Shown piece after piece: positions 6,238-35,721 of a stretch of 39,483 nucleotides of DNA. Each line of letters opens with the position of its first letter. Within the stretch, counting starts at the first letter, position 1. Source of the stretch: Planctomycetia bacterium (GTDB lineage Bacteria; Planctomycetota; Planctomycetia; Gemmatales; Gemmataceae); the NCBI GenBank assembly GCA_005772955.1, contig SXID01000020.1:1-39483 (forward strand), written 5' to 3'. The position numbers and the translations under genes are program-made. Below the pieces are notes generated by a model that did no database searches, had not been told where the DNA came from, and saw nothing but the letters and a program-made list of their open reading frames with translations.

Positions 6238-7344
6238 ATGCTGCCCCGCCTCTCCACACTTCTCGGCGTGTGCGTGCTAGCCGCGCCCGCGTTCGCGGCA
6301 GATGAAGTGCCCGCGAAGCTCGCCCCGTACTTCAAGCCGCCGGCCGAACTCGCGAAGGACTTCGGCACCTACCGCTCGCCGCTCAAGTTCGATGACGGCA
6401 CGGGCGTGAAGAACGCGAGTGACTGGGACAAACGCCGCGCAGAGCTACTGAAGTACTGGCACTCGCAGATGGGCGAATGGCCGAAGTTGCTCGACAAGCC
6501 GAAGGTGGAACTCGGGCCGAAGGAAGACCGCGACGGCGTCACGCAGCACAAGCTCAAGATCGAGACTGCGCCCGGGCGCGTTGTGGAAGACGCGTACCTA
6601 CTCGTGCCGCCAGGGAAGGGGCCGTTCCCCGCTGTGGTCGTCGTCTTCTACGAAGCGAACACCGGCATCGGAAAGGGTAAGTCGGAGTTTCGCGACTTCG
6701 CCGTTCAACTCGCGAAGCGCGGGTTCGTGGCGCTCTCGCTCGGCGGAGACCCGAACACGTACTACCCGACCAAGGCCGAGTGCAAGATTCAGCCGCTGTC
6801 GTTCCACGCTTACGAGGCCGCAAACTGTCACACCGCGCTGTCGCAGATGCCGAACGTGGACCCGAAGCGGATCGGCGTCGTGGGCCACTCTTACGGCGGC
6901 AAGTGGTCGATGTTCGCGGGCGCGCTGCACGACAAGTTCGCGTGCGTCGCGACCTCCGACCCCGGTATCGTGTTCGACGAGAAACGCTCGAACGTGAACT
7001 ACTGGGAACCGTGGTACCTCGGCTTCGATCTCGCGCTCAAGGATCAGCGGAAGTCCGGCATTCCGAATGAAAAGAACCCGCGAACCGGGCCGTACAAGAA
7101 GATGATGGAGGACAAGCGAGACCTCACCGAACTGCACGCGCTGATCGCCCCGCGCCCGTTCTTGGTTAGCGGCGGTGCGGAGGACCAACCGGAGCGCTGG
7201 AAGGCGCTGAATCACAGCATCGCGGTCAACAAACTGCTCGGCGTCGAGAACCGCGTTGCGATGACGAACCGCAAGGCCCACTCACCGGATGCGGAGTCGA
7301 ACGAACTGCTCTACCTGTTCTTCGAGAACGCGCTGAAGCCGTGA
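6238..7344 (+). CDS. secreted alpha/beta hydrolase (esterase-like)
   Basis: A 368-residue protein with a clear signal peptide (residues 1-20, ending AFA-A). The alpha/beta-hydrolase core starts near residue 118; the nucleophile elbow is GHSYGG with S218, the likely acid is E315 or D316 in SGGAEDQPE, and the histidine is H348 in RKAHSPD. The layout, with an N-terminal arm of about 100 residues before the core, resembles secreted acetyl-xylan-esterase/glucuronyl-esterase-like planctomycete proteins, so a periplasmic carbohydrate esterase is a reasonable inference. The ATG has GAGGAA upstream. It lies 114 bases before the sterol pair in the same direction; whether transcription continues into that pair is not visible. 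Confidence 0.8.
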   Translation: MLPRLSTLLGVCVLAAPAFAADEVPAKLAPYFKPPAELAKDFGTYRSPLKFDDGTGVKNASDWDKRRAELLKYWHSQMGEWPKLLDKPKVELGPKEDRDGVTQHKLKIETAPGRVVEDAYLLVPPGKGPFPAVVVVFYEANTGIGKGKSEFRDFAVQLAKRGFVALSLGGDPNTYYPTKAECKIQPLSFHAYEAANCHTALSQMPNVDPKRIGVVGHSYGGKWSMFAGALHDKFACVATSDPGIVFDEKRSNVNYWEPWYLGFDLALKDQRKSGIPNEKNPRTGPYKKMMEDKRDLTELHALIAPRPFLVSGGAEDQPERWKALNHSIAVNKLLGVENRVAMTNRKAHSPDAESNELLYLFFENALKP

Positions 7345-7351
7345 TCGGTTT

Positions 7352-7365
7352 CCGCCGCAAGCGGC
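7352..7365. repeat. short palindrome CCGCCGCAAGCGGC
   Basis: A small palindrome eight bases after the hydrolase stop, flanked by TTCC and GGAA-like arms. It matches the element at 5031-5044 except in the loop (AA instead of TT). No T-tract follows, so termination is uncertain. Confidence 0.4.
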
Positions 7366-7458
7366 AGGAAGAGGTGCCGGACACATTGATCTTGTTGTCG
7401 TCCCTGTGCGCGGGGATAAGATGACGGCTTCCCTCGTGCCCGTGACCACGGCTCCCTC

Positions 7459-8775
7459 ATGCCCCGTGCTGGTTCGGACGAACCCGACTCTTTCCCAGCG
7501 CAGACGCGTGCGGACGTGGTCGTTGTCGGCGGTGGGCCGGTCGGGTGCGCTACTGCGCTTGCGTTCGCCCGGACCGGTGCCCGCGTGTGCCTCGTTGATG
7601 CTCGCCCACAGAGCCTCCGGCTTGGCGGCGAGTGGCTGCACCCGACCGGGGCCGGTATCCTCGCGGATCTCGGCGTCGATTTCGCGGCCGAGAGCATTCC
7701 GCACGCACCGGGTCGCGGGTTCGCGATCTTCCCGAAGGAGTCCGACCCGATCGTGCTGCCCTACGTCGGCGGCGAACTCGCGGTCGGCTGCCAGCATCAC
7801 CTCCTGATCGAAGCGATCCAGAAGACACTCGCACGCTGTCCGAACGTGACCATGCTCGCGGGGTGCCGCGTCACGGAAGTCGCGCGCGGCCGAGTCGCCG
7901 TCGCGACACCCGACCGAAAGCGGAGCATCGAAGTCACGGCCGATCTGGTTGTGGGTGCGGATGGTCGGCAGTCGGTGGTGCGCCAGATGCTCGGCCACCC
8001 CGGTGGCTCGCAGCCGATCTCGTACATGCTCGGCGTGCTGATCGAAGCGAGTGCGCTTCCGTGTACCGAGTTCGGGAATGTGTTCCTCGGTGGCCCTGGT
8101 CCGGTGCTCGCGTTCCGGGTCGATGTGAATCAAGCGCGGGTGTGCTTCGACGTGCCCGCGGACCGCGTCGCGTGGGTGCGGAACCCCTCCGGACTTCTCG
8201 CCGCGTACCAGCCCACACTACCGCGACCGGTACACGAAGCGTGCGAACGCGCACTCGCGGTTGCGCCGCCAGCGGTCGCGGCGAACCAGTGGCTCCGCCG
8301 CCGACAGTACGGGCGCGACGGCGTCGCGCTCGTCGGCGACGCGGTTGGTCACTGTCACCCGCTCTGCGCGGTCGGCATGTCGGTGGGCTTCCTCGACGCG
8401 GTCACGCTCGCAAAGTCGAAGTCGGTCGAAGAGTACGCTTCGAGTCGGCGCTCTGGCGGGCGTGTCCCGGAATTGCTCTCGATGGGCCTTTACGATCTGT
8501 TCGTGGGCGCCGACGCGGGCACGTCCGAATTGCGCGAAGCGGTGTACCACACGTGGCGTTCGTCCGCGGCAGCGCGGCACGACACGATGCGCCTGCTCGC
8601 GGTGCGCGAGACTCGCCGGGCCGCCCTGGGCGTGACGTTCGCGAGGCTCCTGGTCGCGGCCTCGCGCCGGGTCGCGCTCGGCTCGGTGCGCCGGCCGGTC
8701 GGGTACACGCTCGGCGCCGTTGCCGGGTTCGCGAACTGGGCCGGATGGTTCGCCCGCGAATCCCTCACGAACTGA
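7459..8775 (+). CDS. squalene monooxygenase (squalene epoxidase)
   Basis: A 438-residue FAD-dependent monooxygenase. The Rossmann motif GGGPVG is at 24-29 with the acidic strand end at D47, the second FAD/NADPH motif GADGR at 166-170, and the GD motif LVGDAVGHCHP at 292-301. The C-terminal part is hydrophobic and amphipathic (RRPVGYTLGAVAGF region), as in squalene epoxidases that sit on membranes. It would convert squalene to 2,3-oxidosqualene with O2. Identification as squalene epoxidase rather than a generic aromatic hydroxylase rests on the overlapping oxidosqualene cyclase gene downstream and on the lack of an aromatic-hydroxylase C-terminal domain. No clear ribosome-binding site precedes ATG 7459 and no better in-frame start is visible. 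Confidence 0.88.
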   Translation: MPRAGSDEPDSFPAQTRADVVVVGGGPVGCATALAFARTGARVCLVDARPQSLRLGGEWLHPTGAGILADLGVDFAAESIPHAPGRGFAIFPKESDPIVLPYVGGELAVGCQHHLLIEAIQKTLARCPNVTMLAGCRVTEVARGRVAVATPDRKRSIEVTADLVVGADGRQSVVRQMLGHPGGSQPISYMLGVLIEASALPCTEFGNVFLGGPGPVLAFRVDVNQARVCFDVPADRVAWVRNPSGLLAAYQPTLPRPVHEACERALAVAPPAVAANQWLRRRQYGRDGVALVGDAVGHCHPLCAVGMSVGFLDAVTLAKSKSVEEYASSRRSGGRVPELLSMGLYDLFVGADAGTSELREAVYHTWRSSAAARHDTMRLLAVRETRRAALGVTFARLLVAASRRVALGSVRRPVGYTLGAVAGFANWAGWFARESLTN

Positions 8776-10730
8776 TGCCCTACACCGACACCTCCGACGC
8801 GGCCACACGCGCGGCCGATCACCTCCTCGCCATTCAACAGCCGCAAGGGTGTTGGGAGGGCGAAATGGTCTGGTGCCCGGTCGTCACCGCGCAGGTCGCG
8901 ATCACGCGGCACGTCGTCGGCTTTCCGTTCTCGACCGAAGACGCCGCGAAGGTTCTCCTTCACTTCGAGCGCACGCAAACACGCGACGGCGCCTTCGGTC
9001 TGCACCCCGAACACTCCGGCTCGGTGTTCGTCACCAGCATGGTGTACGTCGCGTGCCGGTGCCTCGGCGCGACCGCGGATCACCCGCTCGCGGTCCGCGC
9101 GCGGGGCTGGTTGCACGCACAGCCGGGCGGCATTCTGTCCGTGCCGACATGGGGTAAGTTCTGGCTGGCATTACTCGGGCTGTACGGCCGCGACGGGCTT
9201 CGGCCGCTCGTGCCGGAACTCGCGCTGTTACCGCGTGTGGTCCCGGTTCATCCGATCAGGTTCTACTGCCATACGCGATACGTGTATCTCGCGATGTCGC
9301 TCCTTCAGGGGAGCCACGCGAAGTTCGATCTCGGTCTGCTCGCGGATGAACTTCGCGCGGAACTCTATGGCCCGGTCGGACCGCCGAAGTCGTTCCGCGA
9401 GCACCGCTATCACCTCGCGCCGTCCGACGCCTTCGAGCCGCCGAACCTGCTGATCCGCGCGGCCGAACGCGTCATGGGTTGGTACGACCGTGTGCCGGTT
9501 CGCAAGTTGCGCGAGCACGCGTTGCGCAAGTGCGCGGACCTGATCGCGCGCGACCTCGACGCGACCGGCAACCTCACGCTCTCGCCCGTAAACGGTGTGT
9601 TGAACGTCCTCGCGCTCCACGCGCGCGGCGCGGGCCGAGAACTCATCGCGAAGTGCGTTGAGGGTTTCGAGTTCTACCGGTTCGACAATGTGGATCGCGG
9701 GCTGCGTTACGCCGGCGGGTGTACACGCGTCTGGGACACCGGCTTCGCGGTGGAAGCACTCCTCGCGAATCCGGCTGTGACACGTGCGAACCGCGAACCG
9801 CTCCAGCGGGCCTACCGGTTCTTGGCCGAACACCAGATGACGAAGTCGGTCGCGGGGCGTGACCCGATGTTCCCGGACCGCGCGTTCGGTGGGTGGTGCC
9901 TCGGCGACGCGAAGCACGCGTGGCCCGTCAGCGACTGCACCGCGGAAGCTCTCTCTGCGATCCTCGGAATGCACGCGCTGAAGCTCGCGCCCGACGACCG
10001 CATCCCGGATTCGCGGCTGGCGCTCGCGGCCGATTTCATCCTGTCGCGCCAGAATCGCGACGGCGGGTTCGGCTCTTACGAACGAGCGCGAAGTCCGCGC
10101 TGGCTCGAACGGCTGAACCCGTCGGAGATGTTCACGCGCTGCATGACGGACCAGTCGTATGTCGAATGCACTGGCTCGTGCCTTGTCGCGCTGTCGCGTT
10201 TCCGCACTGCGGTTCCCGCGCACGCGCCGAAGCGCATCGCCACGGCAATGCGTCGCGGCGCACGCTTTCTGCTGTACCGTCAGCGACGCGACGGCGCGTT
10301 CCCCGGTGCGTGGGGGGTGTATCTCACTTACGGCACGTTTCACGCGGTTCGCGGGCTGCGTGCTGCCGGTTACGCGCCCGATCATCCGGCACTTCAGCGC
10401 GCCGCGAACTGGCTCCTTCAACACCAGAAGCCCGACGGCGGATGGGGCGAGCACCACACCGGTTGCCTTCGACAGGAGTACGTCGAACACCCAACCTCAC
10501 AGGCGACGATGACGAGTTGGGCCGTTCTCGCGCTGCGCGAGGTGGTCGGGCCAGGGCACCCCGCAGTGAGGAGCGGCGCGGAATCGCTAGCCGCGCTCCA
10601 GGGCGAAGACGGCTCGTACCCGCGCGAGGCGGTGAACGGCGTGTTCTTCGGAACCGCGATGCTCGACTATGATTTGTACCGCGCGTACTTCCCCGCGTGG
10701 GCGCTCGCGGCTACAACAGCGGGGAGTTGA
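8775..10730 (+). CDS. oxidosqualene cyclase (lanosterol/parkeol synthase type)
   Basis: A 651-residue triterpene cyclase. The initiating acid motif is DCTAE with D387, typical of oxidosqualene cyclases; squalene-hopene cyclases have DxDD instead. Other hand-aligned matches to human lanosterol synthase: H166 in CHTR (His232), W320 in WDTGF (Trp387), C388 and C465 (Cys456, Cys533, which activate the acid) and W513 in GAWGV (Trp581). QW repeats are visible near residues 21, 426, 505, 548 and 607. The N-terminus is about 66 residues shorter than the human enzyme. It would cyclise 2,3-oxidosqualene to a C30 sterol on the membrane. ATG 8775 overlaps the stop of the epoxidase gene by one base (TGATG), implying translational coupling. 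An open frame continues far upstream of this ATG, but it is an out-of-frame reading of the epoxidase gene. Confidence 0.95.
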   Translation: MPYTDTSDAATRAADHLLAIQQPQGCWEGEMVWCPVVTAQVAITRHVVGFPFSTEDAAKVLLHFERTQTRDGAFGLHPEHSGSVFVTSMVYVACRCLGATADHPLAVRARGWLHAQPGGILSVPTWGKFWLALLGLYGRDGLRPLVPELALLPRVVPVHPIRFYCHTRYVYLAMSLLQGSHAKFDLGLLADELRAELYGPVGPPKSFREHRYHLAPSDAFEPPNLLIRAAERVMGWYDRVPVRKLREHALRKCADLIARDLDATGNLTLSPVNGVLNVLALHARGAGRELIAKCVEGFEFYRFDNVDRGLRYAGGCTRVWDTGFAVEALLANPAVTRANREPLQRAYRFLAEHQMTKSVAGRDPMFPDRAFGGWCLGDAKHAWPVSDCTAEALSAILGMHALKLAPDDRIPDSRLALAADFILSRQNRDGGFGSYERARSPRWLERLNPSEMFTRCMTDQSYVECTGSCLVALSRFRTAVPAHAPKRIATAMRRGARFLLYRQRRDGAFPGAWGVYLTYGTFHAVRGLRAAGYAPDHPALQRAANWLLQHQKPDGGWGEHHTGCLRQEYVEHPTSQATMTSWAVLALREVVGPGHPAVRSGAESLAALQGEDGSYPREAVNGVFFGTAMLDYDLYRAYFPAWALAATTAGS

Positions 10731-10829
10731 TGAGCGATTAGCTCGTGGGTTTCCCACAGGATGATGTTGCGTCGTCCGAGCTTCTGCCTCCACATGCGTC
10801 GCGGGGAAGGCTGTTCCAGCACCGCTATC

Positions 10830-10912
10830 GCCGGGCGCCCCCCGGCGCGCCGGCAGGTCTGGAACAACCCCGCCGTTCGTGGTTCCTGCCGGCGCGCCGG
10901 GGGGCGCCCGGC
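10830..10912. repeat. 27-bp perfect inverted repeat, 29-base spacer
   Basis: The arm at 10830-10856 (begins GCCGGGCGCC, ends GCCGGCAG) is the exact reverse complement of 10886-10912. Pairing continues imperfectly outwards through GCACCGC near 10819 and GCGGTGC near 10914. The spacer contains GGAAC and GTTCC, which can also pair. The size and perfection resemble a small non-autonomous palindromic element or a very strong bidirectional terminator; no transposase or target duplication was seen. Confidence 0.8.
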
Positions 10913-10969
10913 GGCGGTGCCGTGAGCCTTCCGCGCCACAGGTCGAGAAGTAACTGCTCAGGCAACTCC

Positions 10970-24711: not shown

Positions 24712-27700
24712 CTACTGGAGCAGGAAGTATCCCGGGTGCTTCAACAACCGGATGAGAACGGCCTGCTGCGTGATGCCCATCGGGCCGCTCATGAGAGTTA
24801 CGAAGTTGTTCAACTCCGCGCTGGTAGGCGTGCGGAGCAGGTACGACTGGTAGAACCGCGTAATGAGCTGCTGCCGGTACTCGGTCGAATTAAGTATCTG
24901 TAGTGCGACCGAGAACCGCGCGGCCGAGAGCAGGGCGGTGGTGGCGGTCTGGGTGTTGAGGTAGTCGAGTTGCGTCACGGCAATCGCGTCGTCAGCCATG
25001 CGGCCGAGCAGCGCGTTGTAGACCTTCGCGATCCAGCCCGAGTTGGCACTGCCCGGCCCGCTGAGAAGGAAGAATTCCGTGCTGCGGAGGATGTTGGCGA
25101 CGACCGCCTCGAGCCGCATGGTCACGGTCGCCGTGGTCGGCGGCGTTGTCGTGATGTTCGAGACGTAGGGGACGATACTCTGGTAGAACGCCTCTTGTGC
25201 GTTCAGTTCGGCTTGCGTTGGCACCCGCGCCAGGCCGGGCAAACTCAGGAACTGCGTGTAGTAATCGGTGTAGAACCGGTCCCGAGTCTCTCGGTTGCTA
25301 AGGATTGTGGTGAGCACCGTCGCGCGGGTCGTGGTGTAGTCCGCCAGAAGGCCCGTGAGCGTGCTGGTGAACTCGACCCCGGTGACCGGATCCGTGTCGA
25401 TTGTCGCCCGACCGAGGACGCGGGTGTACAGACTCTTCAGCCACTCGAAGTTGCTGTCACCACGAACCCGCAGGTACTCGGATGACGCGACGAGCGAGAT
25501 GATAACCTGTTGGTCGCCGGTGGGCTGCCCGGCAACGCCACTGGTCCGCAATAGTGTCAAGAAGTTGGTCGCGGGTAGCGCGTTGTACGGGTACCCCGTG
25601 GTCTCGTCGATCCTCGCGTCGAAGCTATTACGCACCGGGTTGCGGCCGAGGAACAGGCGCATGTACTCGGTGACAGTCTGACGCAGCGCGTCATCACTGA
25701 ACACCAACTGGTTCGTGACTTGCGTCCGCGTCAGGCTACTTGGGAATGCCGGAGCGACCACGCCGGGGAGTACATCGCGGTAGAGACTGATGATCCAGGT
25801 CGCGTTGCTGTTGTTCCCGCCGAAGGGAACGTTGATGAAGTACTCGTTGCTGGCAAGCAGTTGCACCACCAGCCCGCGGATCGTCTGCGTGCCGTTCTGG
25901 ATCGCTGTACGTGTCGTTTCCAGTTCCATCGCCGCGCTGCCGCTGGTTGGTACACGCCGCAGATACCGCTGGTACGTGCCGTTGACGAGGTTGTCGATCT
26001 CCTCAGCGGAATTCACGAGGGTGGTCGCGAACCTGTTGAGCGATGCACGTCGGACTGTCTCGACGGAATTGGCGAGAGGGAAGAACCCGGCTTGGTCCGG
26101 CTTGCGCCCGCTTGGTGAGATGCCCTGGAAGTCCTCGTACACTGCCGAGATGAACCGACCGTTGTCGTTGTTGTTCACCGAGATGAAGGTTGTGAACCGG
26201 TCGCCCTGGTTCGCGTTGCTGGGGAACGCGCCTACTGGCTGCTCACCATTGAACGGATTCTGATTCTGGTTCATCGGATTGCCGGTGTTTGCGTACGTCC
26301 CGTTCAGGTCGATGAAGTCCTTGAGTACCACTCCGACTGTGTTCGGCCCGATGAACAGCCGGTAACTGCTGTCCAACAGGCGCGGCGCAAACGTCAACCG
26401 ATACGTCATGTTGGTGGTGTCGGTCGGAGCGATCGACAGCGGTGCCGCGATCCCACCAGGACCGTTCAGGAACGCCAGAGCGCTCTGGCCGAGGATAGGC
26501 GCGAACAGAAGCAGTTCGCTCTGGCCGAACGGGCGCCCGGCGAGCGACCGGAACACCCAGTCGAGCCAGTTCGGATCCGTCGCGACGCGCAGGAAACCCT
26601 GCTCCTGGCCGACGACCGAGGACACGAATTCGCTGCTCTCGTACCCGACCACCAGGTCGGTCAGGCCGTCCTGGTTGGTGTCGCCAGCAGCGAGGAAGGA
26701 GGGCTTGCTCCCGGTGAGTGGGTACGTGAACGGCGGCGCGAAGGCGAGCGTGTCCGGTCCCGGCACGGTCGCCGCTGTGGTGTTGTTCAGAACCGCCAGG
26801 CCACCGCCGGAGGCGCCGCTGCCGACCACGATGTCCAACTTGCCGTCACCAGTCATGTCGGCGAGTTGAACCTGCCGTGGGTTGGCTCCGGTCGCCACCA
26901 TCGAGGGAGTGAACGCACCCCCTCCGTCATTGCGGAACAGCAGCGCCATACCCGCCGCGTTGTCGGAGATCGCAACGATATCCAGGTCGGTGTCGCTGTC
27001 GAGGTTGCCGACGGTGACCGAGGTGGTCGGCGTGTTTGTGCGCCGAACCCGCGTCGCTGTGGGGAACGTCCCCGGTGTGGCTGCGCTATTGATCAGCGTC
27101 ACGAGACCGTTACTGCCGGACACGATCAGGTCAAGTCGGTTGTCGCCGTCCAGGTCGCCCAGCGCGAGGCCGGATGGCAACTGAAGTTCGGTGGCTCCTA
27201 CCGTGCCCACAGTGTCGCCGAGCACGACCTTTGACAACGCGCCGAACCCGCCACTTCCGTTACCCAACAGGATGCTGGCAGTGTACTCGTTGGACAAGTT
27301 CACCGAGCGGTTCGCGACGACCAGGTCGAGACCCCCGATTCCGTCAACGTTCCCGACGGCCAACCCAAATGGGTTGTTCCCGCCATCGAGGTCGGTGCGG
27401 GTACCGAAACCGAGTTGCCCCACCGCCGCGCTGGTGTTGAGGAACACGCTGACGGTGTTCGTGGTAGTTGAGGTGAGCGCCGAGTTGGCGACCGCGATGT
27501 CCATCTTGCCGTCGTTGTTGAAGTCTGCCACGACGATAGTGGCAGGATCAGCGCCCATGGGGAGGTCGAGGGTGGCGTTGCGGGTGGGTGCCTGGCCCAG
27601 ACGGACAAGCGTTGGGTCCGGCGAGAAGCCGCCACCGACCTTGCCAGCGTATACCCTCAGTTTGTTGTCACTGCCTGCCACGAGAAGGTCGAGAACCGGG

Positions 27701-30700
27701 GCGCCCGCTCCGTTGGCCCCCGTGGTCAGGCCGGTGAGATTACCCAGGGCCACGGCCTTCGTGGTGACGCCCACGGGCAACGCGTAGTCGTTGCCCAACC
27801 TCTGGTAGGCTTCAGTCGTGGAGATGATACGCGCGACGACGTTGCGAAGCAGACCGCCGCGGGCGAGCGTGGCGACGTGGTTCACGATCTCCGGGTTCGA
27901 AGCCCCGGACACGGGGTAATTGCGAGCCACCAGTTTGTTGTAGAGTGCCGCAACGAGGTTGGTGTGGAACTCGGCTGCCCGCACGTTGAGCGGGTTGACG
28001 AGGGCCGCGTTGGGCAAGCTCGTCGGGCCAGGTGGAGTGCCGTTCGCGGCTCTTGCCCCTGTGAGTAGTTGTGTGATCTGGAGGCGTGTTCGCGTGTTCG
28101 CGTTCAGGTCTGTGAGGAATCCTGCCGCGATAGTGTCGCCGGTCGCAGTGCGGAAGAACAGATCCTGCCACACCTTCTCGATCCAGGTTGCGTTCGTGTT
28201 GCCACCGAGGTTGGCGAAGTAGAAGTTGCTCGACGTGAGGAACGACGTGTATTCCAGTTCGCCTTGCAGTCGGCTGTCGTTCACCATCGTGCCGGACGAC
28301 GCCGCAAACACCTGGTTGATGGTGAATTCGCCCGCGACGACATTGCCCGCACCAGTAAGTGTGGTGTTGAAGAAGTACGTTAGCCCGATGTTGATGTCGC
28401 CCTGGCTCGCGACGCGGTTCTGGTATTGCTGGACCAGTTCCTTGACGCGAGTGGTGGCGAAGTCGGTGCTGTTGAGCGCGAGCAGCGTGAGCAGCGTGCG
28501 CGGGGCGTTGTTCGAGTCCGCGGTGAAGGTGCGTGGGTCCACCGGCGTGTTGAATGTGACGTCGAGCGAGTTGAGCGCGCCGTCGGTTGTGGGCGACGCC
28601 GGAGCAACTAGTGTGATGGCCGGGCCGAACCGGGCCGTCGACAGAGTGAACACGCCGCGACCCTGCGTCGCGACAGCCAACACCTCAAAAGCGGCGTTGA
28701 ACTGCACGTCCACGACTGGGGCGGCAGGCAGGCCGTTGCCCAGTGGCAGCCAGTTCGCCCCGCCATCACCCGAGATGAACATGCCGCGGTCGGTACCCAG
28801 GTACATTCGCCCCAACGGGGCGCCGGCGCTGACCCGCGGGTCGATGACCATCTTGTACGACGTCACCAGCGGAAGTCGCGTGGTTCCGGTGCCCGTCACC
28901 GCGGTCCACGTTGGGCTTGCCAAGTTGGCGTTGAGTGTCCGGTACACGCTGATCTGGCCAAATGGGGTCGCTAGCATCACGAAAACTGTGTTCCCGGTCG
29001 TGTCCCGTGGATCGACGGTGATCCCGTTGATCGCGAACGCGCCCCCCACGAGGGTGAGCAGGTTGCCGGTTATACTGACGAACGAACCAACGGCGGTGGT
29101 CCTGAGTACGTTGCCTTCGTTGGTCCCGGCCAGATACACGGTGCTGTTGCCCGAGAACGCAAGGGCCGAGTAACGCTCGGTGCCAGTCAGATCGGACAGG
29201 GGAATGGCATCAAACACGTTGCCGCCGGTGCGGGAAATGTACACCTGGTTGGTTCCGAAGAGCAACTCGTCGTAGAAGACGCCGTCCACGGCCACCTTCA
29301 CTGGGTTGATCGCGAGGACTGGTGCGACCGCGGCTGTGTCCTGACTACTGATACCGGCGGAAGCACCCGTGGAGAACGTCTGTCCGGCGTCGATCGAGAC
29401 CTCGGGGACGAGTGACGCCGAACCGTTGAACTGCCAGGCGCGGTACAGCGTGGTCACAGCGTCGAGTGGGGCGTCTGGAGCCAGGTTTGCGGCCACGATC
29501 TTGAACGCGTTCGGGATGTTGAGATTACCTGTGCTGACGGTCGGCCCGGTGAGGCCGCTCGTCTGCCAGGCTGACGGACCACCCGTGGTGGTCGCGGTTC
29601 CCACGCCCGAGGCGGAGATGTAGAGCGTAGTCCGAGTGGTCGGGTCGATCGCGACCGATGTCAGGTCGGTGATCTGGAGATTGCCGTTGAGTTCGGTGAT
29701 CGTCATCCCGGCTGGGTTGAAGGTGGTAGCAGCGCCACCGCCACCGCCACCGCCACCACCGTCTAGAATGCCGGCGAAACTGCTATCGAAGTCGTACTGG
29801 AAGCCGAGCGCAGTGCCGCGGTAGAGGCCGTTCTCAGTGCCGAACAGGAGTCGGCCCTGAGTGTCGAATGCGATCCGGTGGATCGCAGTCGGCAGGCGCC
29901 GCTGACTGCCAGTGTTATCGAGGTTGCCTTGCCTGATCTGTGCTCGTTCGATGTCGTACCAGTACACCCCCTCGCCGCGGTAGGCCTGACCACCTATCCC
30001 GGTCACCGGGTTGACCGGATACAGCCCGAGCGCGAATTCTGCGGCTGCGGCCTTGTCGCGGTCATCGCCATCGTTGGGGAATACGCCTGGAGTTGTCTCG
30101 ACTGTGGCGTCCCGAATGTTCCCGGTATCGACGCGGATCAGCGCGTGCTGTGGGGTGACGGAAGGATTGCTGAACAAGCGGTTCGAGCCGCCGACGTAGA
30201 CCACGTTCGGGTTGCTCGGGTCCACCGACATCGCGCCAACTGTCGAACCTTCGGCCCCGACAAGTTCGATATCGACGTAGTTCTCGGTGTATCGCCCGTG
30301 CAATAACCCCGGTTCCCTCAACGACACTTTCGTGAAGTTGAGCATGTTGTCCTTCGACTTGTAGAGCCCCATGGAGGTGCCGTTGTCGAACTGACTCGGG
30401 TTTAGCCCGGGTGGCGGGTTTGCGATCAGCACGTAAACGTACCTCTCGTCACCCACCCGCCCGGTGCCCTGTGCGAGGGTGATGCGACCAACGCCTGCGG
30501 AGGGTAGGATGCCCCGGGTGTCCGTGGTGGGGTTGCTGGCCAGTGGGCCGCCCGGTCCCGCAGCGTCGCCGCCGAGTTGGAGTTCCCAGGTGCCGCCGCC
30601 GTTGGTGGAGAGCCACACACCGGTGGTGGTCTGAAAAGCAACCTGACCGATGTTTCCCAGGCCGATGATAATGCGGTTTGGGTTGAACGGGTCCACGAGC

Positions 30701-33700
30701 AGGTCGGTAACCGAAGGGAGGGGGGCACCGGGACCGCCGACGGTGATGTTGCCCACGAACATGGCCTGCGGGTTCAGGACATTGGTCCACGTCACGTTGA
30801 GTGGGTTCGCTGCGGTGCCGTTGGTTGTCTTGAGGATCATCGGCGTCTTGGTCGGGTCATCCCACGAGGTAATAGCCACGTAGACGACCGCGGGGTTGCT
30901 CGGGTCCACGACGACCTTGGACACTCGGGCGCCGGCGAAGATGCCGTTGCTGGTCACCGTGGCCCCGTTGACACCCGCCGTGGTGGCGCCGCCGAGAACC
31001 TGCCAGTTGGTGCCGTTGTCGAGTGACCGCAGTACGCCGATACTCGTCCGCGAGGTGAACGCGGTATCGTCCACGCCCGTGGCCGCGTAGATTGCCTTGA
31101 CGGTTCCGCTGGAGTTAGTGCCGAGGGTGAGGCCCCCCACGGACACATTCACTCGCTGGTTGGTAAGGTCGGTCACGTTGTCGGTGACGGCCAGGTAGTT
31201 ACTTCCGCCATCCAGGGTCTTCCACACGCCCCCGTTGGCCGAGCCGACGTAGAGCGTGTTCCCGCTCGGGTCGGTCGGGTCCACCGCGATCCCGGTAATC
31301 TTGCCGGACACGGTGGCGTAGTTGAACCCAGCCGAGGCGACGTTGATCGGTCCCGGCCCAGCCGCCGCCCAGTTCGTCAGACTCGGACCCTGGAGGATGA
31401 AAGTGTAGGTTTGAACCAGCGCGTTGCTGGCCTGATCCACCACCTGAACAGGGATGTTCTGGAGACCCGGTAACAGCGTAGTGGCGGTGAAGGCAAAGAA
31501 CCCGTTAGCGTCAAACGTCGTGATCGCGACGTCGTCTGGGCTTGGGTTGGCGGGGGTACCGAACCCGTTGTTCGCCAGGTCGAAGGTTATTTGCTTGACG
31601 TTGTTGCTCGAACCGTCGTCAGCGATCCGGCCCACGATGGTCGGGTCGGTCGATTGCTCCAGGGTGTTGGGGCCAGCGAGGAACGACGGGTTCCGCAAGT
31701 TGATGGACTGGAGAGACGGGCGCACAGTATCGGTGAACACCGTCTGAATGCGGACGTTGTCCAGACCGACGGTCAACCGACCCTGGTTGTTTGTCGTCGC
31801 GATGCGCAGCCGGACCGACTGGCCGACGAACTGGCTCAGGTCGATGGCCGAGCCTCCTGAGAACGTTACCGTGCGGACGATCGCGTCCGTACTCTGGGTC
31901 TGGAATATGTTGAGGAGGACGTTCCCGCCGTCGATGAAGTCTGTGACGCCGAGAACACCCAGAGCGCCGTTAGGGTTGAGGACGTTCCCACCGGTGCTCA
32001 CGATATCGACGCGGACTTGCTGGTTTGAATCGCTGGTCCGGTAGTCGAGAGCCGATGTGGTCGTGGCATCGGTCCAGCTGGTGGCGCTGTTCATGAAGAG
32101 GCTGAACGAGAGCTTCACGCTGGTCGCGGAGGCCGGGACGATGAAATCCTGGTAAAGGGCGTGCGACCCGGCGTAGGTGTCGGCGGCGTTCGGGTTGTTG
32201 TTCCCTTCATACGGGCGCAGGTTTTGCTGGTCGAGCATCGCCTGGTACTTGCCCGAGGGCGCGGGCACGACCGTGCCACTGAGGGGACTCAGCCCGGCCG
32301 TGTGGATGCCCCAAGCACCAGCGCTGCCGCGGGTCGTGTCCCGGAGTTTGAAGGCGGTCCAGCCGTCCAGGTTCCCCTGCTCGTTGGTCAACGAGCGGGC
32401 ATCAAACCCCCCGTTGCGGATCAGGTTCACGCTGACCGTGGTGCCGCCCACATTAAAGGTGGACAACAACCGGAATGGGTCGCTGATAACGGCCACAAAC
32501 GACGGGACCGGTGTCGCGGACCCGGCCGCCGGGGTCGTGGTTGGGATGTCCACCGAGTAGTCATCGACGCTTGTCGCGAAGCCACCGTCCCCGGTGCCCA
32601 GGAGGACGTGCGTGTTGTTCAGTGGGTTCGGGGGCGGGGGCGGGGACCCCTTGCCCGGCGGGTCATACGCTCGCGAGGTGACAACCAGGTCGATGAATGC
32701 GTCCGAGTTCACGTTCAGGGCCGCGATGCTCTGGAGCGGCACCCCGGTGGTGACCGTCGTATTGATGGCCGTCTGGAACCCGGTGCCCAGGTTGTTCAAG
32801 AGAACACTGACGTTATCCGTGGTCGTGTTGTTCCGGCTTACGGTCGCGATGTCCGCGTACCCGTCGTTGTCGAAGTCGACCGCGACGATGTCTATCGGGT
32901 TGTTACCGACGGTGAAGGTGCCCCCATTGGTGAAGACGCCTTTACCGTCCCCGGAGCGGATTTTTACCTCACCGGGGGTGTTGTCGTTCGTTACGGCAAA
33001 GTCCAGATTCCCGTCCAGGTTGAAGTCGGCAACGGCCAGCCCCGTTGCGCGGGTGCCAGACGCGTATTCGATCGCATTCTGGAACGCGCCGTTGCCGCTC
33101 CCCAGGCGCACCGTGACACCGCGACTCGAACCGCCGCCACCGCCGTTGTGGGCAACGAGCAAGTCCAGGTCGGAGTCGTTGTTGATGTCCGCGAGCTTCA
33201 CCTGGGTGGGCGTGCGACCCACGGTCACGCGGGTGGGGGCGGCGAACGTCAGCGCGCCACCAGCATTGGTTGTGTTCAGGAAGATCGCGACGTTGTTGTC
33301 CCGCTGACTGGCGGAGACGATGTCGAGTTTGCCGTCCCCGTTCAGGTCGCCCAGCGTGACCGAAACCGGTTCCCGACTGTTGCCGCCGGTGCTCGGTGAA
33401 AACGTCTGAGCCGCCGCATATCCACCGCCATTGAGACCCAGGAACACGTTGACCAAGCTGTTCTGCAGATCTGGGGCAACGAGGTCGAGGATGCCGTCCA
33501 GGTTCAGGTCGCCAACTGCTGGTTCACGCGGGTTCGCTTTAGCACCCGAGAGCAGCAGGTTGGTGGGGGCGAGGAAGGTGCCGTCTCCGGTCGAGCCACT
33601 GCCGGAGCCGGTGTAGAACGAGAAGGTGTTGTCGTTGGCGGTGGCGGAGGCAGTGCCGCCGAACACCACCAGATCGTTGATCCCCTCGCCCGTGAAGTCC

Positions 33701-35721
33701 CCAAGAGCCGCGCCGACGGGACTCGCGCCGGTTGGGTACGGCGCGAGGGTGAGGGTGCCTGTGTTCGCGTTGTAAGTTCCCAGAGTCACGCCTTCGGTGG
33801 CGTTGAGTGAGAAACTGCTCGCGTTGATCCGGGTGATGAAGAAGGAGCCGTTCGCCTGACCCGCCCCGCCGACGCCGGCGATTGTGATCTGTTGCCCGGT
33901 CCGCAACCCGTGGTTGGGGGCGGTGACGACGATCGGGGCCGCTGCGGCTTTCGTCACATTGGTGATGATGCCGGGTAGTGCGATCCACGTTCCGGTGTTG
34001 GAATCCCCGTCCAGTAACCCGAGGGTGACACCGCCCACCAACTGGAACGTGTTGGTGGTGACCCCGGTGATGTAGAACGTGCCGTTGGCGTCGGGGTTCG
34101 GCACAGTGGCGGGGGTAGCGTCTTGGTAGGTAGCGCCACTGATGACGACCCGTTGTCCGTTGACCAACCCGTGGGCGGTGCTGTTGATGGTGGTGACGGT
34201 GGCGGTACTGTTAGCATCGGAGATCAACCCGGTTTGCAGCGGGGCGCGGGAAACGGCACCGCCGGCCGCGGCGCCGTTCACGTACACCAGTTCGAGGGAA
34301 CTGGACCCGGTGCCGTTCAGATCCTTGAGTAGCAATCCGGTCGGGGCCGCAACGCCGGACGTGATGACGTCGGTGGGCCGGAATACGCCGGCCCCGTTGT
34401 TCAGGAACGCGACGAGCGACCCGGTGTTGGTCGTGGCGACAACATCGAGACGCCCGCTCCCGTTGGCGCGGACCCGGCCTGTCGCCAGCGACGTGATCGC
34501 GGGGCCTGCGACGAATGTCGCAGCGAAAGTGTGGGCTATCGCTGTCGAGGTGTTCAGCAGGATGCTCACGCCGGTGGCGCCACCCACCACGATGTCGTCG
34601 GTGCCACCTGACCCGTTGAAGTCGCCGACCGCGATGCTTGTCGGGGTCGTCAGGTCCGCGCCCGCCAACCCAACGATGGCTTCCGTGGGGGTTGCGACGA
34701 ATGTGCCGTCGCCGTTGCCTGTGAGGATTTTGACGACGAAATCTGCCAAGCCGGTGCTCGCGGCCACGGTGGAGTTCGCGACGACCAAGTCCACGCCGTT
34801 GCCCACGCCAAGTTGCGCGGACGCAAGCGCCACTGGAGAGTCGCCGGCTGCGAAGTTCGTCGCGGCGCTGAAGTTCAGTTCGCCCGCCGTGGTGTTCAGG
34901 TTCAAGAACACGCTGACGTTGTCGGTCCCGGTGTTGGCGACCGCAATATCTGCTTTCGAGTTTCCGTCCGCGTTCAAGTCGGTCACGACAATCGCGCTCG
35001 GCGCGGCACCGGTTGGCAGGTCGAGGGTCAGGTCCGGGAGCGTCGAGAATCCGCCCAGCGGGTCGCCCAGGTAGATGACCACGCTCGAGGACCCGCTGCT
35101 GGTGACGAGTAGGTCTTTAAGCCCGTCGTTGTTCACGTCCGTGATGGCTGCAGCGGAGGGCAGGTAGTTCGTCGTGCCCTGAGCCGGTAGACCGAGGGTC
35201 TGGACCGCGCCGAGATTGGAGCCGTTGAGCGCGACCGTCGCGAGGTTACTGCGCCCGCCGTTGGCGATCACGATCTGACCGGGCGCGGCCAGTGTGTCGG
35301 TTGGCACGGCCTGGTCGGCAATCTGGTCCCCACGGAGGAACAGAGAGTACGCCCCAGCGGTGAGGGGGCCGCCACTCACGGACAGATCCGTAGTGAGAAT
35401 GGTCGCGGTAAAGTTCAGGAGGGGATTCAGGTTCGTGTCGTCATAGGTGACGCTCGCGATGGTCACTGGTGTGCCGTCAGCCGCAAACAGCCGATAGTTG
35501 CCCGTCTGATCGGCTCCCGTCACGTCGATGGAGTATTTCACCGTGATCGAGGTGCCGAGCGAGCCGCCCGTCGCCGGGGTCACCAGTTGGACGACCGGGG
35601 TCGCGGGCACCTCGCGGGCCTCCAGTGTTTCCAGCGTCAGTTGGTGGCGCGGCCGCGCTGGGGTCTTCGAGAGGGGCCGCTTCGAGGAACCGACCAGCCG
35701 GAAGAACTTGAACCAGTTCAT
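24712..35721 (-). CDS. giant surface protein: FG-GAP repeats, sortilin-like propeller, DUF4214-like repeats
   Basis: A 3669-residue protein. The N-terminus is basic and carries LETLEAREVPA at 30-40, a planctomycete motif linked to extracellular giant proteins. In order: FG-GAP/VCBS repeats with DxNxDGxxD-type calcium loops (about 170-1040), interrupted by two E1-like 'HGLxxGQ' domains (about 507-650); a jelly-roll, carbohydrate-binding-like region (NGGFD, about 1088-1335); an Ig-like region (about 1337-1445); a BNR/sortilin-like propeller (about 1447-2360) with VWKTLDGG and a nine-glycine run; then a second FG-GAP block (about 2647-3027) among DUF4214-like units. Five units share N-x-x-W-I/L-x-x-V/L-Y/W/F near residues 2507, 3047, 3307, 3424 and 3559. 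It is probably a calcium-binding, secreted or cell-surface adhesion protein. GAGAAAGG lies just before ATG 35721. It appears to be monocistronic. Confidence 0.9.
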   Translation of the reverse strand: MNWFKFFRLVGSSKRPLSKTPARPRHQLTLETLEAREVPATPVVQLVTPATGGSLGTSITVKYSIDVTGADQTGNYRLFAADGTPVTIASVTYDDTNLNPLLNFTATILTTDLSVSGGPLTAGAYSLFLRGDQIADQAVPTDTLAAPGQIVIANGGRSNLATVALNGSNLGAVQTLGLPAQGTTNYLPSAAAITDVNNDGLKDLLVTSSGSSSVVIYLGDPLGGFSTLPDLTLDLPTGAAPSAIVVTDLNADGNSKADIAVANTGTDNVSVFLNLNTTAGELNFSAATNFAAGDSPVALASAQLGVGNGVDLVVANSTVAASTGLADFVVKILTGNGDGTFVATPTEAIVGLAGADLTTPTSIAVGDFNGSGGTDDIVVGGATGVSILLNTSTAIAHTFAATFVAGPAITSLATGRVRANGSGRLDVVATTNTGSLVAFLNNGAGVFRPTDVITSGVAAPTGLLLKDLNGTGSSSLELVYVNGAAAGGAVSRAPLQTGLISDANSTATVTTINSTAHGLVNGQRVVISGATYQDATPATVPNPDANGTFYITGVTTNTFQLVGGVTLGLLDGDSNTGTWIALPGIITNVTKAAAAPIVVTAPNHGLRTGQQITIAGVGGAGQANGSFFITRINASSFSLNATEGVTLGTYNANTGTLTLAPYPTGASPVGAALGDFTGEGINDLVVFGGTASATANDNTFSFYTGSGSGSTGDGTFLAPTNLLLSGAKANPREPAVGDLNLDGILDLVAPDLQNSLVNVFLGLNGGGYAAAQTFSPSTGGNSREPVSVTLGDLNGDGKLDIVSASQRDNNVAIFLNTTNAGGALTFAAPTRVTVGRTPTQVKLADINNDSDLDLLVAHNGGGGGSSRGVTVRLGSGNGAFQNAIEYASGTRATGLAVADFNLDGNLDFAVTNDNTPGEVKIRSGDGKGVFTNGGTFTVGNNPIDIVAVDFDNDGYADIATVSRNNTTTDNVSVLLNNLGTGFQTAINTTVTTGVPLQSIAALNVNSDAFIDLVVTSRAYDPPGKGSPPPPPNPLNNTHVLLGTGDGGFATSVDDYSVDIPTTTPAAGSATPVPSFVAVISDPFRLLSTFNVGGTTVSVNLIRNGGFDARSLTNEQGNLDGWTAFKLRDTTRGSAGAWGIHTAGLSPLSGTVVPAPSGKYQAMLDQQNLRPYEGNNNPNAADTYAGSHALYQDFIVPASATSVKLSFSLFMNSATSWTDATTTSALDYRTSDSNQQVRVDIVSTGGNVLNPNGALGVLGVTDFIDGGNVLLNIFQTQSTDAIVRTVTFSGGSAIDLSQFVGQSVRLRIATTNNQGRLTVGLDNVRIQTVFTDTVRPSLQSINLRNPSFLAGPNTLEQSTDPTIVGRIADDGSSNNVKQITFDLANNGFGTPANPSPDDVAITTFDANGFFAFTATTLLPGLQNIPVQVVDQASNALVQTYTFILQGPSLTNWAAAGPGPINVASAGFNYATVSGKITGIAVDPTDPSGNTLYVGSANGGVWKTLDGGSNYLAVTDNVTDLTNQRVNVSVGGLTLGTNSSGTVKAIYAATGVDDTAFTSRTSIGVLRSLDNGTNWQVLGGATTAGVNGATVTSNGIFAGARVSKVVVDPSNPAVVYVAITSWDDPTKTPMILKTTNGTAANPLNVTWTNVLNPQAMFVGNITVGGPGAPLPSVTDLLVDPFNPNRIIIGLGNIGQVAFQTTTGVWLSTNGGGTWELQLGGDAAGPGGPLASNPTTDTRGILPSAGVGRITLAQGTGRVGDERYVYVLIANPPPGLNPSQFDNGTSMGLYKSKDNMLNFTKVSLREPGLLHGRYTENYVDIELVGAEGSTVGAMSVDPSNPNVVYVGGSNRLFSNPSVTPQHALIRVDTGNIRDATVETTPGVFPNDGDDRDKAAAAEFALGLYPVNPVTGIGGQAYRGEGVYWYDIERAQIRQGNLDNTGSQRRLPTAIHRIAFDTQGRLLFGTENGLYRGTALGFQYDFDSSFAGILDGGGGGGGGGAATTFNPAGMTITELNGNLQITDLTSVAIDPTTRTTLYISASGVGTATTTGGPSAWQTSGLTGPTVSTGNLNIPNAFKIVAANLAPDAPLDAVTTLYRAWQFNGSASLVPEVSIDAGQTFSTGASAGISSQDTAAVAPVLAINPVKVAVDGVFYDELLFGTNQVYISRTGGNVFDAIPLSDLTGTERYSALAFSGNSTVYLAGTNEGNVLRTTAVGSFVSITGNLLTLVGGAFAINGITVDPRDTTGNTVFVMLATPFGQISVYRTLNANLASPTWTAVTGTGTTRLPLVTSYKMVIDPRVSAGAPLGRMYLGTDRGMFISGDGGANWLPLGNGLPAAPVVDVQFNAAFEVLAVATQGRGVFTLSTARFGPAITLVAPASPTTDGALNSLDVTFNTPVDPRTFTADSNNAPRTLLTLLALNSTDFATTRVKELVQQYQNRVASQGDINIGLTYFFNTTLTGAGNVVAGEFTINQVFAASSGTMVNDSRLQGELEYTSFLTSSNFYFANLGGNTNATWIEKVWQDLFFRTATGDTIAAGFLTDLNANTRTRLQITQLLTGARAANGTPPGPTSLPNAALVNPLNVRAAEFHTNLVAALYNKLVARNYPVSGASNPEIVNHVATLARGGLLRNVVARIISTTEAYQRLGNDYALPVGVTTKAVALGNLTGLTTGANGAGAPVLDLLVAGSDNKLRVYAGKVGGGFSPDPTLVRLGQAPTRNATLDLPMGADPATIVVADFNNDGKMDIAVANSALTSTTTNTVSVFLNTSAAVGQLGFGTRTDLDGGNNPFGLAVGNVDGIGGLDLVVANRSVNLSNEYTASILLGNGSGGFGALSKVVLGDTVGTVGATELQLPSGLALGDLDGDNRLDLIVSGSNGLVTLINSAATPGTFPTATRVRRTNTPTTSVTVGNLDSDTDLDIVAISDNAAGMALLFRNDGGGAFTPSMVATGANPRQVQLADMTGDGKLDIVVGSGASGGGLAVLNNTTAATVPGPDTLAFAPPFTYPLTGSKPSFLAAGDTNQDGLTDLVVGYESSEFVSSVVGQEQGFLRVATDPNWLDWVFRSLAGRPFGQSELLLFAPILGQSALAFLNGPGGIAAPLSIAPTDTTNMTYRLTFAPRLLDSSYRLFIGPNTVGVVLKDFIDLNGTYANTGNPMNQNQNPFNGEQPVGAFPSNANQGDRFTTFISVNNNDNGRFISAVYEDFQGISPSGRKPDQAGFFPLANSVETVRRASLNRFATTLVNSAEEIDNLVNGTYQRYLRRVPTSGSAAMELETTRTAIQNGTQTIRGLVVQLLASNEYFINVPFGGNNSNATWIISLYRDVLPGVVAPAFPSSLTRTQVTNQLVFSDDALRQTVTEYMRLFLGRNPVRNSFDARIDETTGYPYNALPATNFLTLLRTSGVAGQPTGDQQVIISLVASSEYLRVRGDSNFEWLKSLYTRVLGRATIDTDPVTGVEFTSTLTGLLADYTTTRATVLTTILSNRETRDRFYTDYYTQFLSLPGLARVPTQAELNAQEAFYQSIVPYVSNITTTPPTTATVTMRLEAVVANILRSTEFFLLSGPGSANSGWIAKVYNALLGRMADDAIAVTQLDYLNTQTATTALLSAARFSVALQILNSTEYRQQLITRFYQSYLLRTPTSAELNNFVTLMSGPMGITQQAVLIRLLKHPGYFLLQ

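What the first reader, a model, noticed from the sequence alone, without database searches (positions are those of the whole stretch)
7459..10730. Complete two-gene bacterial sterol-forming unit
A squalene epoxidase and an oxidosqualene cyclase overlap by one base. The cyclase has DCTAE (D387), CHTR (H166), WDT (W320), C465 and GAWGV (W513), the oxidosqualene-cyclase set rather than the hopene-cyclase DxDD. Sterol synthesis is rare in bacteria; Gemmata obscuriglobus is the known planctomycete case, reported to make lanosterol and parkeol. No later sterol-demethylation or reduction gene lies next to the pair, so the pathway may stop at the first cyclic product here.
Basis: partly seen in the sequence, partly recalled or inferred. 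Interest (0 to 1): 0.85.

Follow-up and report, generated by a model that had tools for sequence, protein, structure and literature searches.

The report
Planctomycete two-gene sterol (parkeol) unit
This is a real pair of bacterial sterol-forming genes of the kind already known from Gemmata, and its active site predicts parkeol rather than lanosterol as the main product, in a genome where no gene of the later sterol steps searched for was found.

Summary
Window 7459-8775 (+) encodes a squalene epoxidase and 8775-10730 (+) an oxidosqualene cyclase (OSC); stop and start share one base. The cyclase passes the curated OSC model (1016.8 bits, cut-off 851), fails the hopene-cyclase model (230.9, cut-off 431.1) and groups with bacterial OSCs. 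The reading is right in kind but less novel than scored: this is the known Gemmata sterol operon. Both genes occur in 15 of 95 genomes of the family, 12 of 19 of the genus; in a phylum draw 1 of 392 (the window's own) has the cyclase. Two refinements. (1) Leu376 equals human Phe444: 12 of 12 genus cyclases have Leu, 72 of 73 other bacterial OSCs examined have Phe. Published work (PMC9236903) ties 444-Leu to parkeol synthases, G. obscuriglobus included, so parkeol is predicted rather than mainly lanosterol. (2) In the whole draft genome no P450, no ERG4/24 reductase and no close sterol-methyltransferase-like gene was found, so the pathway probably ends at the first cyclic product. By contrast one family bin (G093) carries OSC, CYP51, C14-reductase and a Rieske oxygenase together. 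No product was measured.

The parts
7459..8775 (+). Squalene epoxidase (squalene monooxygenase), 438 aa, bacterial type; P0001
   Evidence: PF08491 SE 77.5 bits (cut-off 20.1); PDB best hit human squalene monooxygenase 6c6n E 1.2e-20; only match in its genome; strong matches occur in the same 15 of 95 family genomes as the OSC
8775..10730 (+). Oxidosqualene cyclase, 651 aa, Leu444 (parkeol) type; P0002
   Evidence: TIGR03463 1016.8 bits (cut-off 851), hopene_cyclase TIGR01507 only 230.9 (cut-off 431.1); tree; AlphaFold model pLDDT 90.2, Foldseek best hit human OSC, TM 0.94
8773..8777 (+). TGATG stop/start overlap of one base joining the two genes
   Evidence: read directly; spacing differs in relatives
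9933..9947 (+). DCTAE motif of the OSC (residues 387-391), general acid D387 = human D455
   Evidence: coordinates computed as 8775 + 3 x (residue - 1)
9900..9902 (+). Codon of Leu376 = human Phe444, the published product-switch position
   Evidence: no gap between GGW and DCTAE in the printed rows; role from PMC9236903

Best explanation
The two genes form a short operon of a Gemmata-type planctomycete. Squalene, made by HpnC/HpnD-type enzymes found elsewhere in the genome, is epoxidised by the flavin monooxygenase (7459-8775). The 2,3-oxidosqualene is protonated by D387 of the cyclase (8775-10730), cyclised to the protosteryl cation and rearranged. With Leu376 in place of the usual Phe444, the enzyme is expected to deprotonate at C11 from the C9 cation and give mainly parkeol, with lanosterol as possible co-product as reported for G. 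obscuriglobus. Since no P450, ERG4/24 reductase or close sterol-methyltransferase-like gene was found in the genome, this 4,4,14-trimethyl sterol is probably the end product and serves the membranes. Shown here: gene identity, motifs, phylogeny, residue 444, and that the searched later genes were not found. From published work on a close relative: parkeol formation and essentiality. Inferred: that the window's enzymes are expressed and give the same products.
For: OSC model passed and hopene model failed. Catalytic residues D455, C456, C533, H232, Y503, W387, W581, F696 (human numbers) all present. Tree: the window OSC lies in a clade of the 12 genus OSCs (SH-aLRT 99) within bacterial OSCs, the 6 hopene cyclases split off at 100. 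Leu at 444 in 12 of 12 genus OSCs (window included), Phe in 72 of 73 other bacterial OSCs examined and 18 of 18 family SHCs. G. obscuriglobus OSC with 444-Leu makes parkeol in yeast (PMC9236903 passages). SQE and OSC found in the same 15 of 95 family genomes. Own genome: 0 P450 (control rang in 7 of 14 genomes); 0 ERG4/24 (where no control genome rang, where the same search rings at 381 bits in G093); no SMT-like hit at E 1e-20; no full-length hopene cyclase seen; one HpnC over cut-off and one HpnD-like.
Against: No product, transcript or protein was measured. The genome is a 278-contig draft, so absences are provisional although completeness is listed as 100. The 444 rule is not fully clean: the PMC9236903 main text reports that the sea urchin F-to-L mutant gave lanostadienol with lanosterol, while PMC11641436 describes it as giving parkeol. 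G. obscuriglobus cells hold lanosterol too (Wei 2016, Table 3 passage). V453, kept here, is tied to lanosterol in Wei 2016. HpnD scored 253.9 against a cut-off of 278.6 on the matched stretch only, and HpnE was not looked for. UbiH-type models match the SQE about as well by raw score (88.9 and 78.1 bits) as the SE domain (77.5), though far below their curated cut-offs.
Confidence: 0.8

Rival explanations
1. The cyclase makes mainly lanosterol, as the V453 rule suggests, and residue 444 is only a lineage mark.
For: V385 = human V453, the residue Wei 2016 ties to lanosterol. G. obscuriglobus cells contain lanosterol and parkeol. The genus also shares changes at human 381, 384 and 435, so 444 is not the only candidate site.
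Against: The G. obscuriglobus enzyme, which has 444-Leu, gave parkeol in yeast, and L-to-F in a sea cucumber parkeol synthase restored lanosterol (PMC9236903).
Confidence: 0.17
2. The cyclase is a squalene-hopene-type or arborane-type cyclase rather than a sterol-forming OSC.
For: Same superfamily and fold: VIA-align Z 44.9 to SHC 2sqc and 44.7 to human OSC, a tie. A bacterial OSC that makes arborane triterpenols exists (Banta 2017, seen only as a reference title).
Against: DCTAE not DxDD; TIGR01507 230.9 against cut-off 431.1; tree; Foldseek ranks human OSC first, E 2e-44 against 1.3e-32 for SHC; sites 232, 453, 456 and 533 differ from all 18 SHCs; a close relative makes parkeol in yeast. The arborane reading was not tested on its own.
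Confidence: 0.02
3. The pathway does not stop at the first cyclic product; later steps are done by unrecognised enzymes, or by genes missing from the draft assembly.
For: 278 contigs; two relatives in the genus have an SMT-like gene between SQE and OSC (G021, G023), and family member G093 has CYP51, C14-reductase and a Rieske oxygenase beside OSC. Only some known families were searched.
Against: No P450 in the window genome nor in 5 further OSC genomes, the single-contig 9.0 Mb G011 among them; no match above 30% identity to the G093 CYP51 in any of the 12 genus OSC genomes; G. obscuriglobus is reported to make only lanosterol and parkeol.
Confidence: 0.12

Closest known systems
Gemmata obscuriglobus sqmo-osc operon (Pearson 2003, cited only; Rivas-Marin 2019 PMC6606645; GoPS of Thimmappa 2022 PMC9236903)
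   Same: Co-located SQE and OSC, and Leu at human position 444. In G011, which is probably G. obscuriglobus (an inference from its single 8,999,201-base contig and its top TIGR03463 score), no P450 was found and no hopene-cyclase match of 100 bits or more.
   Different: A different species: window OSC and SQE are 75% and 76% identical to those of G011. One-base overlap here; nine bases between stop and start in G011. Product not measured.
Sea cucumber parkeol synthases (PMC9236903)
   Same: Leu in place of Phe444, with H232 and Y503 kept; parkeol type occurs together with lack of CYP51.
   Different: Animal enzymes that feed saponins; the window OSC is 32% identical to the human OSC, and no sea cucumber sequence was compared here.
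Bacterial OSCs with Phe444, e.g. Methylococcus capsulatus (L079)
   Same: Same OSC family and V453; SQE close by.
   Different: Phe at 444; SQE lies downstream of OSC in L079; CYP51-like genes in the fetched stretch of 46 of 73 non-genus loci and 0 of 11 genus loci.
Squalene-hopene cyclase (TIGR01507), present in many relatives
   Same: Same fold and superfamily.
   Different: Motif and clade differ; model cut-off not reached.

Membership tests
2,3-oxidosqualene cyclase (TIGR03463) | Curated model cut-off 851 bits | tested here: met
   1016.8 bits, residues 15-646
2,3-oxidosqualene cyclase (TIGR03463) | DCTAE with general acid Asp and Cys456/Cys533 partners | tested here: met
   D387, C388, C465 align with human D455, C456, C533
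2,3-oxidosqualene cyclase (TIGR03463) | Groups with OSCs and not with hopene cyclases | tested here: met
   66-row tree, split supported at 100
2,3-oxidosqualene cyclase (TIGR03463) | Cyclises 2,3-oxidosqualene | not testable with these tools
   needs expression; shown for the G. obscuriglobus relative (PMC9236903 passages)
Squalene-hopene cyclase (TIGR01507) | Curated cut-off 431.1 bits and DxDD motif | tested here: not met
   230.9 bits; VSDCTAE in place of DxDD
Parkeol synthase (GoPS type) | Leu at human position 444 with H232 and Y503 kept | tested here: met
   L376, H166, Y435
Parkeol synthase (GoPS type) | Parkeol as product | not testable with these tools
   GC-MS needed
Lanosterol synthase | Phe at 444 | tested here: not met
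   Leu376
Lanosterol synthase | Val at 453 (Wei 2016 rule against cycloartenol) | tested here: met
   V385
Squalene epoxidase (PF08491) | SE domain over gathering score | tested here: met
   77.5 bits, cut-off 20.1
Squalene epoxidase (PF08491) | Human residues E165, Q168, Y195 (numbers and roles recalled) | tested here: inconclusive
   E kept, Q168 is His, Y195 is Phe; the same in nearly all of the 69 bacterial SQEs aligned (E 68, His 66, Phe 68; one row has a gap), so this looks like a bacterial type and not a defect of this gene

The most novel reading that the evidence does not exclude
Parkeol, not lanosterol, is the end-point sterol of the whole Gemmata genus: Phe444-to-Leu, fixed together with G381, T384 and P435 and with absence of CYP51, repeats in bacteria what sea cucumbers did. 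In the same family the sterol pathway also exists in a long form (G093: OSC, CYP51, C14-reductase, Rieske oxygenase, SMT-like gene) and a middle form (two genus members with an SMT-like gene between SQE and OSC), so Planctomycetota may make demethylated or side-chain methylated sterols.
Probability: 0.5. Interest if true: 0.6.

Novelty: new member of a known kind. Interest (0 to 1): 0.38.

Why it matters
Bacterial sterols bear on sterane fossils, on the origin of sterols, and on why Gemmata cells need them. The window adds a member to a small set with a predicted, easily tested product. Around it, the genus is a natural experiment: of 19 genomes 10 have OSC without SHC, 5 SHC without OSC, 2 both and 2 neither. 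That makes the open question of sterol/hopanoid replacement testable with cultured relatives. If the SMT-like and CYP51 genes of family members work, planctomycetes could leave steranes richer than those of lanosterol or parkeol.

Tried and rejected
Hopene-cyclase reading: rejected. Chance ORF or foreign insert: rejected; third-position GC of the two genes (0.81, 0.80) is in the range of four neighbours (0.78-0.85), though total GC of the SQE gene, 0.70, is above the window's 0.64, and relatives of three upstream neighbours also lie beside the pair in the nearest relative G024 (clusters 7, 39, 43). A second OSC or hidden SHC in the genome: of the 13 other PF13243 places, three lie in a 606-aa and a 329-aa protein that fall below every OSC/SHC cut-off; the other ten, all weak and partial, were not scanned. 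Single origin of the family's OSCs: the free tree splits them into three places, but an AU test does not reject one clade (p 0.08), so no claim of several transfers is made. SMT identity of the gene between SQE and OSC in G021/G023: Pfam, NCBIfam and PDB hits are generic methyltransferases, so it stays SMT-like; the resemblance to the Erg6 sterol-binding segment is recalled. Promoter and terminator scan of 7300-10950 found nothing, which says little at this GC content. VIA-align could not separate OSC from SHC (Z 44.7 and 44.9). The phylum search drew 392 genomes, and the listed rows show 3 scored candidates each, so rare OSC carriers can be missed; L077, titled Planctomycetaceae, is one outside the genus. 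The comparison set of other OSCs is biased: one search kept the best 80 of 261 loci, chosen by likeness to Gemmata-type OSCs, so farther bacterial OSCs (cycloartenol-forming myxobacteria among them) were not checked at 444. The sterol-hopanoid exclusion test (Fisher p 5.7e-5 over 95 genomes, 0.045 in the genus) ignores relatedness and counts hits of 100 bits or more, partial ones included, so it is descriptive only. No full paper was read: PMC6606645 part 1 of 4 and passages, PMC4919349 sections 8 and 14 and passages, PMC9236903, PMC11641436, PMC10070321 and PMC12004948 passages; Pearson 2003, Summons 2006, Gudde 2019 and Banta 2017 were seen only as citations. A search of the held open-access papers for Gemmataceae with sterol and hopanoid gave none; Frigoriglobus with sterol gave 1, not opened; PMC10070321 on bacterial SMTs holds neither 'planctomycet' nor 'gemmata'.
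Full report
Observation. The window is the whole contig C103 (39,483 bases) of an assembly of 5.93 Mb in 278 contigs. The junction is TGATG, with one shared base.

Identity of the cyclase. NCBIfam TIGR03463 (2,3-oxidosqualene cyclase) scores 1016.8 bits against a cut-off of 851; TIGR01507 (hopene cyclase) scores 230.9 against 431.1. The best PDB sequence relative is human lanosterol synthase, E 1.7e-104. An AlphaFold model (pLDDT 90.2, pTM 0.92) matches human OSC best by Foldseek (E 2e-44, TM 0.94), ahead of hopene cyclase (1.3e-32); a second aligner ties the two. In a 66-row tree the window protein sits in a clade of the 12 genus OSCs (SH-aLRT 99), itself inside bacterial OSCs; 6 hopene cyclases of the family are split off at 100, and the one human and one plant OSC lie outside the bacterial rows.

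Identity of the epoxidase. PF08491 (squalene epoxidase) 77.5 bits, cut-off 20.1; PDB best hit human squalene monooxygenase, E 1.2e-20. UbiH-type models match about as well by raw score but stay far under their cut-offs. It is the only match in the genome. Across the family, matches of more than 270 bits occur in 15 of 95 genomes, and these are the same 15 that carry the OSC. Two human substrate-site residues, Q168 and Y195 (numbers and roles recalled), are His and Phe here; the same holds for 66 and 68 of 69 bacterial SQEs aligned, so this is the bacterial form.

Distribution. OSC matches above 800 bits: 15 of 95 family genomes, 12 of them over the curated cut-off; 12 of 19 genomes of the genus. 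In a phylum-wide draw only the window's own genome of 392 has one at E 1e-120 or better. SQE and OSC lie within 1 kb on one strand in 13 of 15; in G013 and G093 they lie on different contigs. In G021 and G023 a gene of about 292 aa, a methyltransferase resembling sterol C24-methyltransferases (resemblance recalled), lies between them.

Product. Against human numbering the window has V453, as in bacterial lanosterol formers (Wei 2016, PMC4919349, section 14), but Leu at 444. All 12 genus OSCs have Leu444; of 73 other non-duplicate bacterial OSCs 72 have Phe and one Val; all 18 hopene cyclases examined have Phe. Of those 73, 70 come from the best 80 of 261 loci that one search found, so OSCs farther from Gemmata were not examined. 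The genus also shares Gly at 381 (others Ala 71 of 73; the loop is one residue shorter than in human, so this position depends on gap placing), Thr at 384 (others Ser 72 of 73) and Pro at 435 (others Arg 73 of 73). Thimmappa and others (PMC9236903, passages) showed that 444 is Phe in lanosterol, Leu in parkeol and Gln in lanostadienol synthases of echinoderms, found five bacterial OSCs with Leu, and showed that the G. obscuriglobus enzyme makes parkeol in yeast. Parkeol is thus the best prediction for the window enzyme, with lanosterol as a possible co-product, since both occur in G. obscuriglobus cells. A result against a clean rule: the paper's main text gives lanostadienol, not parkeol, for the sea urchin F-to-L mutant, while PMC11641436 reports parkeol for it.

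Where the pathway stops. In the window's genome: no P450 (control positive in 7 of 14), no ERG4/ERG24 reductase (where no control genome rang, where G093 rang), no SMT-like gene at E 1e-20, no second OSC, and no hopene cyclase seen (the two largest other cyclase-like proteins are under all cut-offs). Squalene supply is present: one HpnC over cut-off and one HpnD-like protein, 253.9 against 278.6 on the matched stretch. None of the 12 genus OSC genomes has a match above 30% identity to the CYP51 of G093, and 6 of the 15 OSC genomes have no P450 match at all. Elsewhere, a CYP51-like gene (40% identity or more) lies in the fetched stretch of 46 of 73 non-genus OSC loci, against 0 of 11 genus loci.

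A contrast in the same family. G093 (contig VGYC01000162.1) carries OSC, a C14-sterol reductase (381.7 bits; best PDB hit delta14-sterol reductase 4quv, E 4.6e-140), a Rieske oxygenase and a CYP51 (best PDB hit CYP51 6mcw, E 6.9e-121) within about 7 kb. On another contig it has an SQE with an SMT-like gene 1.6 kb away. Its OSC has Phe444. It is the only one of 95 family genomes with an ERG4/24 match over cut-off. It is a metagenome bin, so misbinning is possible.

Sterols or hopanoids. Counting hopene-cyclase-like matches of 100 bits or more, 3 of 15 OSC genomes have one (G017, G026, G093) against 61 of 80 others; in the genus: OSC only 10, both 2, SHC only 5, neither 2. The SHCs of these three OSC genomes are genuine by cut-off (702.5, 692.8, 688.9 bits against 431.1). 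PMC6606645 calls G. obscuriglobus the only planctomycete reported to make sterols, among hopanoid-making relatives; the genes show a patchwork instead, with both in some genomes. Relatedness was not corrected for.

Verdict. A sound observation of an already described gene pair in a further species. The new points are small but checkable: a Leu444 parkeol-type signature in 12 of 12 genus OSCs, the joint absence of CYP51, and longer sterol gene sets in relatives.

Noticed in passing
L048 3758-10362 (G093, bin of the window's family, contig VGYC01000162.1 in L074): OSC, delta14-sterol reductase, Rieske/VanA_C oxygenase and CYP51 in one cluster; an SQE and an SMT-like gene on contig C23 of the same bin. 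A long sterol gene set in the window's family.
   Followed up: partly
L050 10975-11853 (-) and L049 8046-8924 (+): An SMT-like methyltransferase gene between SQE and OSC in two Gemmata bins (G021, G023); 49% identical relative in G093, 51% in a Scytonema bin (L111), 40-42% in three Streptomyces loci.
   Followed up: partly
L057 6865-8898 (+) in G026; L056 6290-8506 (+) in G017; L058 5788-7902 (-) in G093: Genuine hopene cyclases in genomes that also carry OSC, against the picture of strict sterol/hopanoid replacement.
   Followed up: partly
L054 11363-13183 (+), own genome contig C99: 606-aa squalene-cyclase-like protein with a DCDDT motif, below all OSC/SHC cut-offs; similar weak hits in frames of about 600-660 aa recur in many family genomes. 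Function unknown.
   Followed up: no
window 6238-7344 (+): Alpha/beta hydrolase (weak dienelactone-hydrolase match) directly upstream of SQE; relatives of it lie beside the pair in G024, G010 and G009 (cluster 7).
   Followed up: no
window 24712-35721 (-): A 3669-aa ORF with FG-GAP repeats and a DUF4214 stretch, perhaps a giant surface or secreted protein.
   Followed up: no
L103, human position 444: A Streptomyces OSC with Val444 and Thr384, the only other departure from Phe444 among the 73 non-genus OSCs examined; its product is not known from any call.
   Followed up: no
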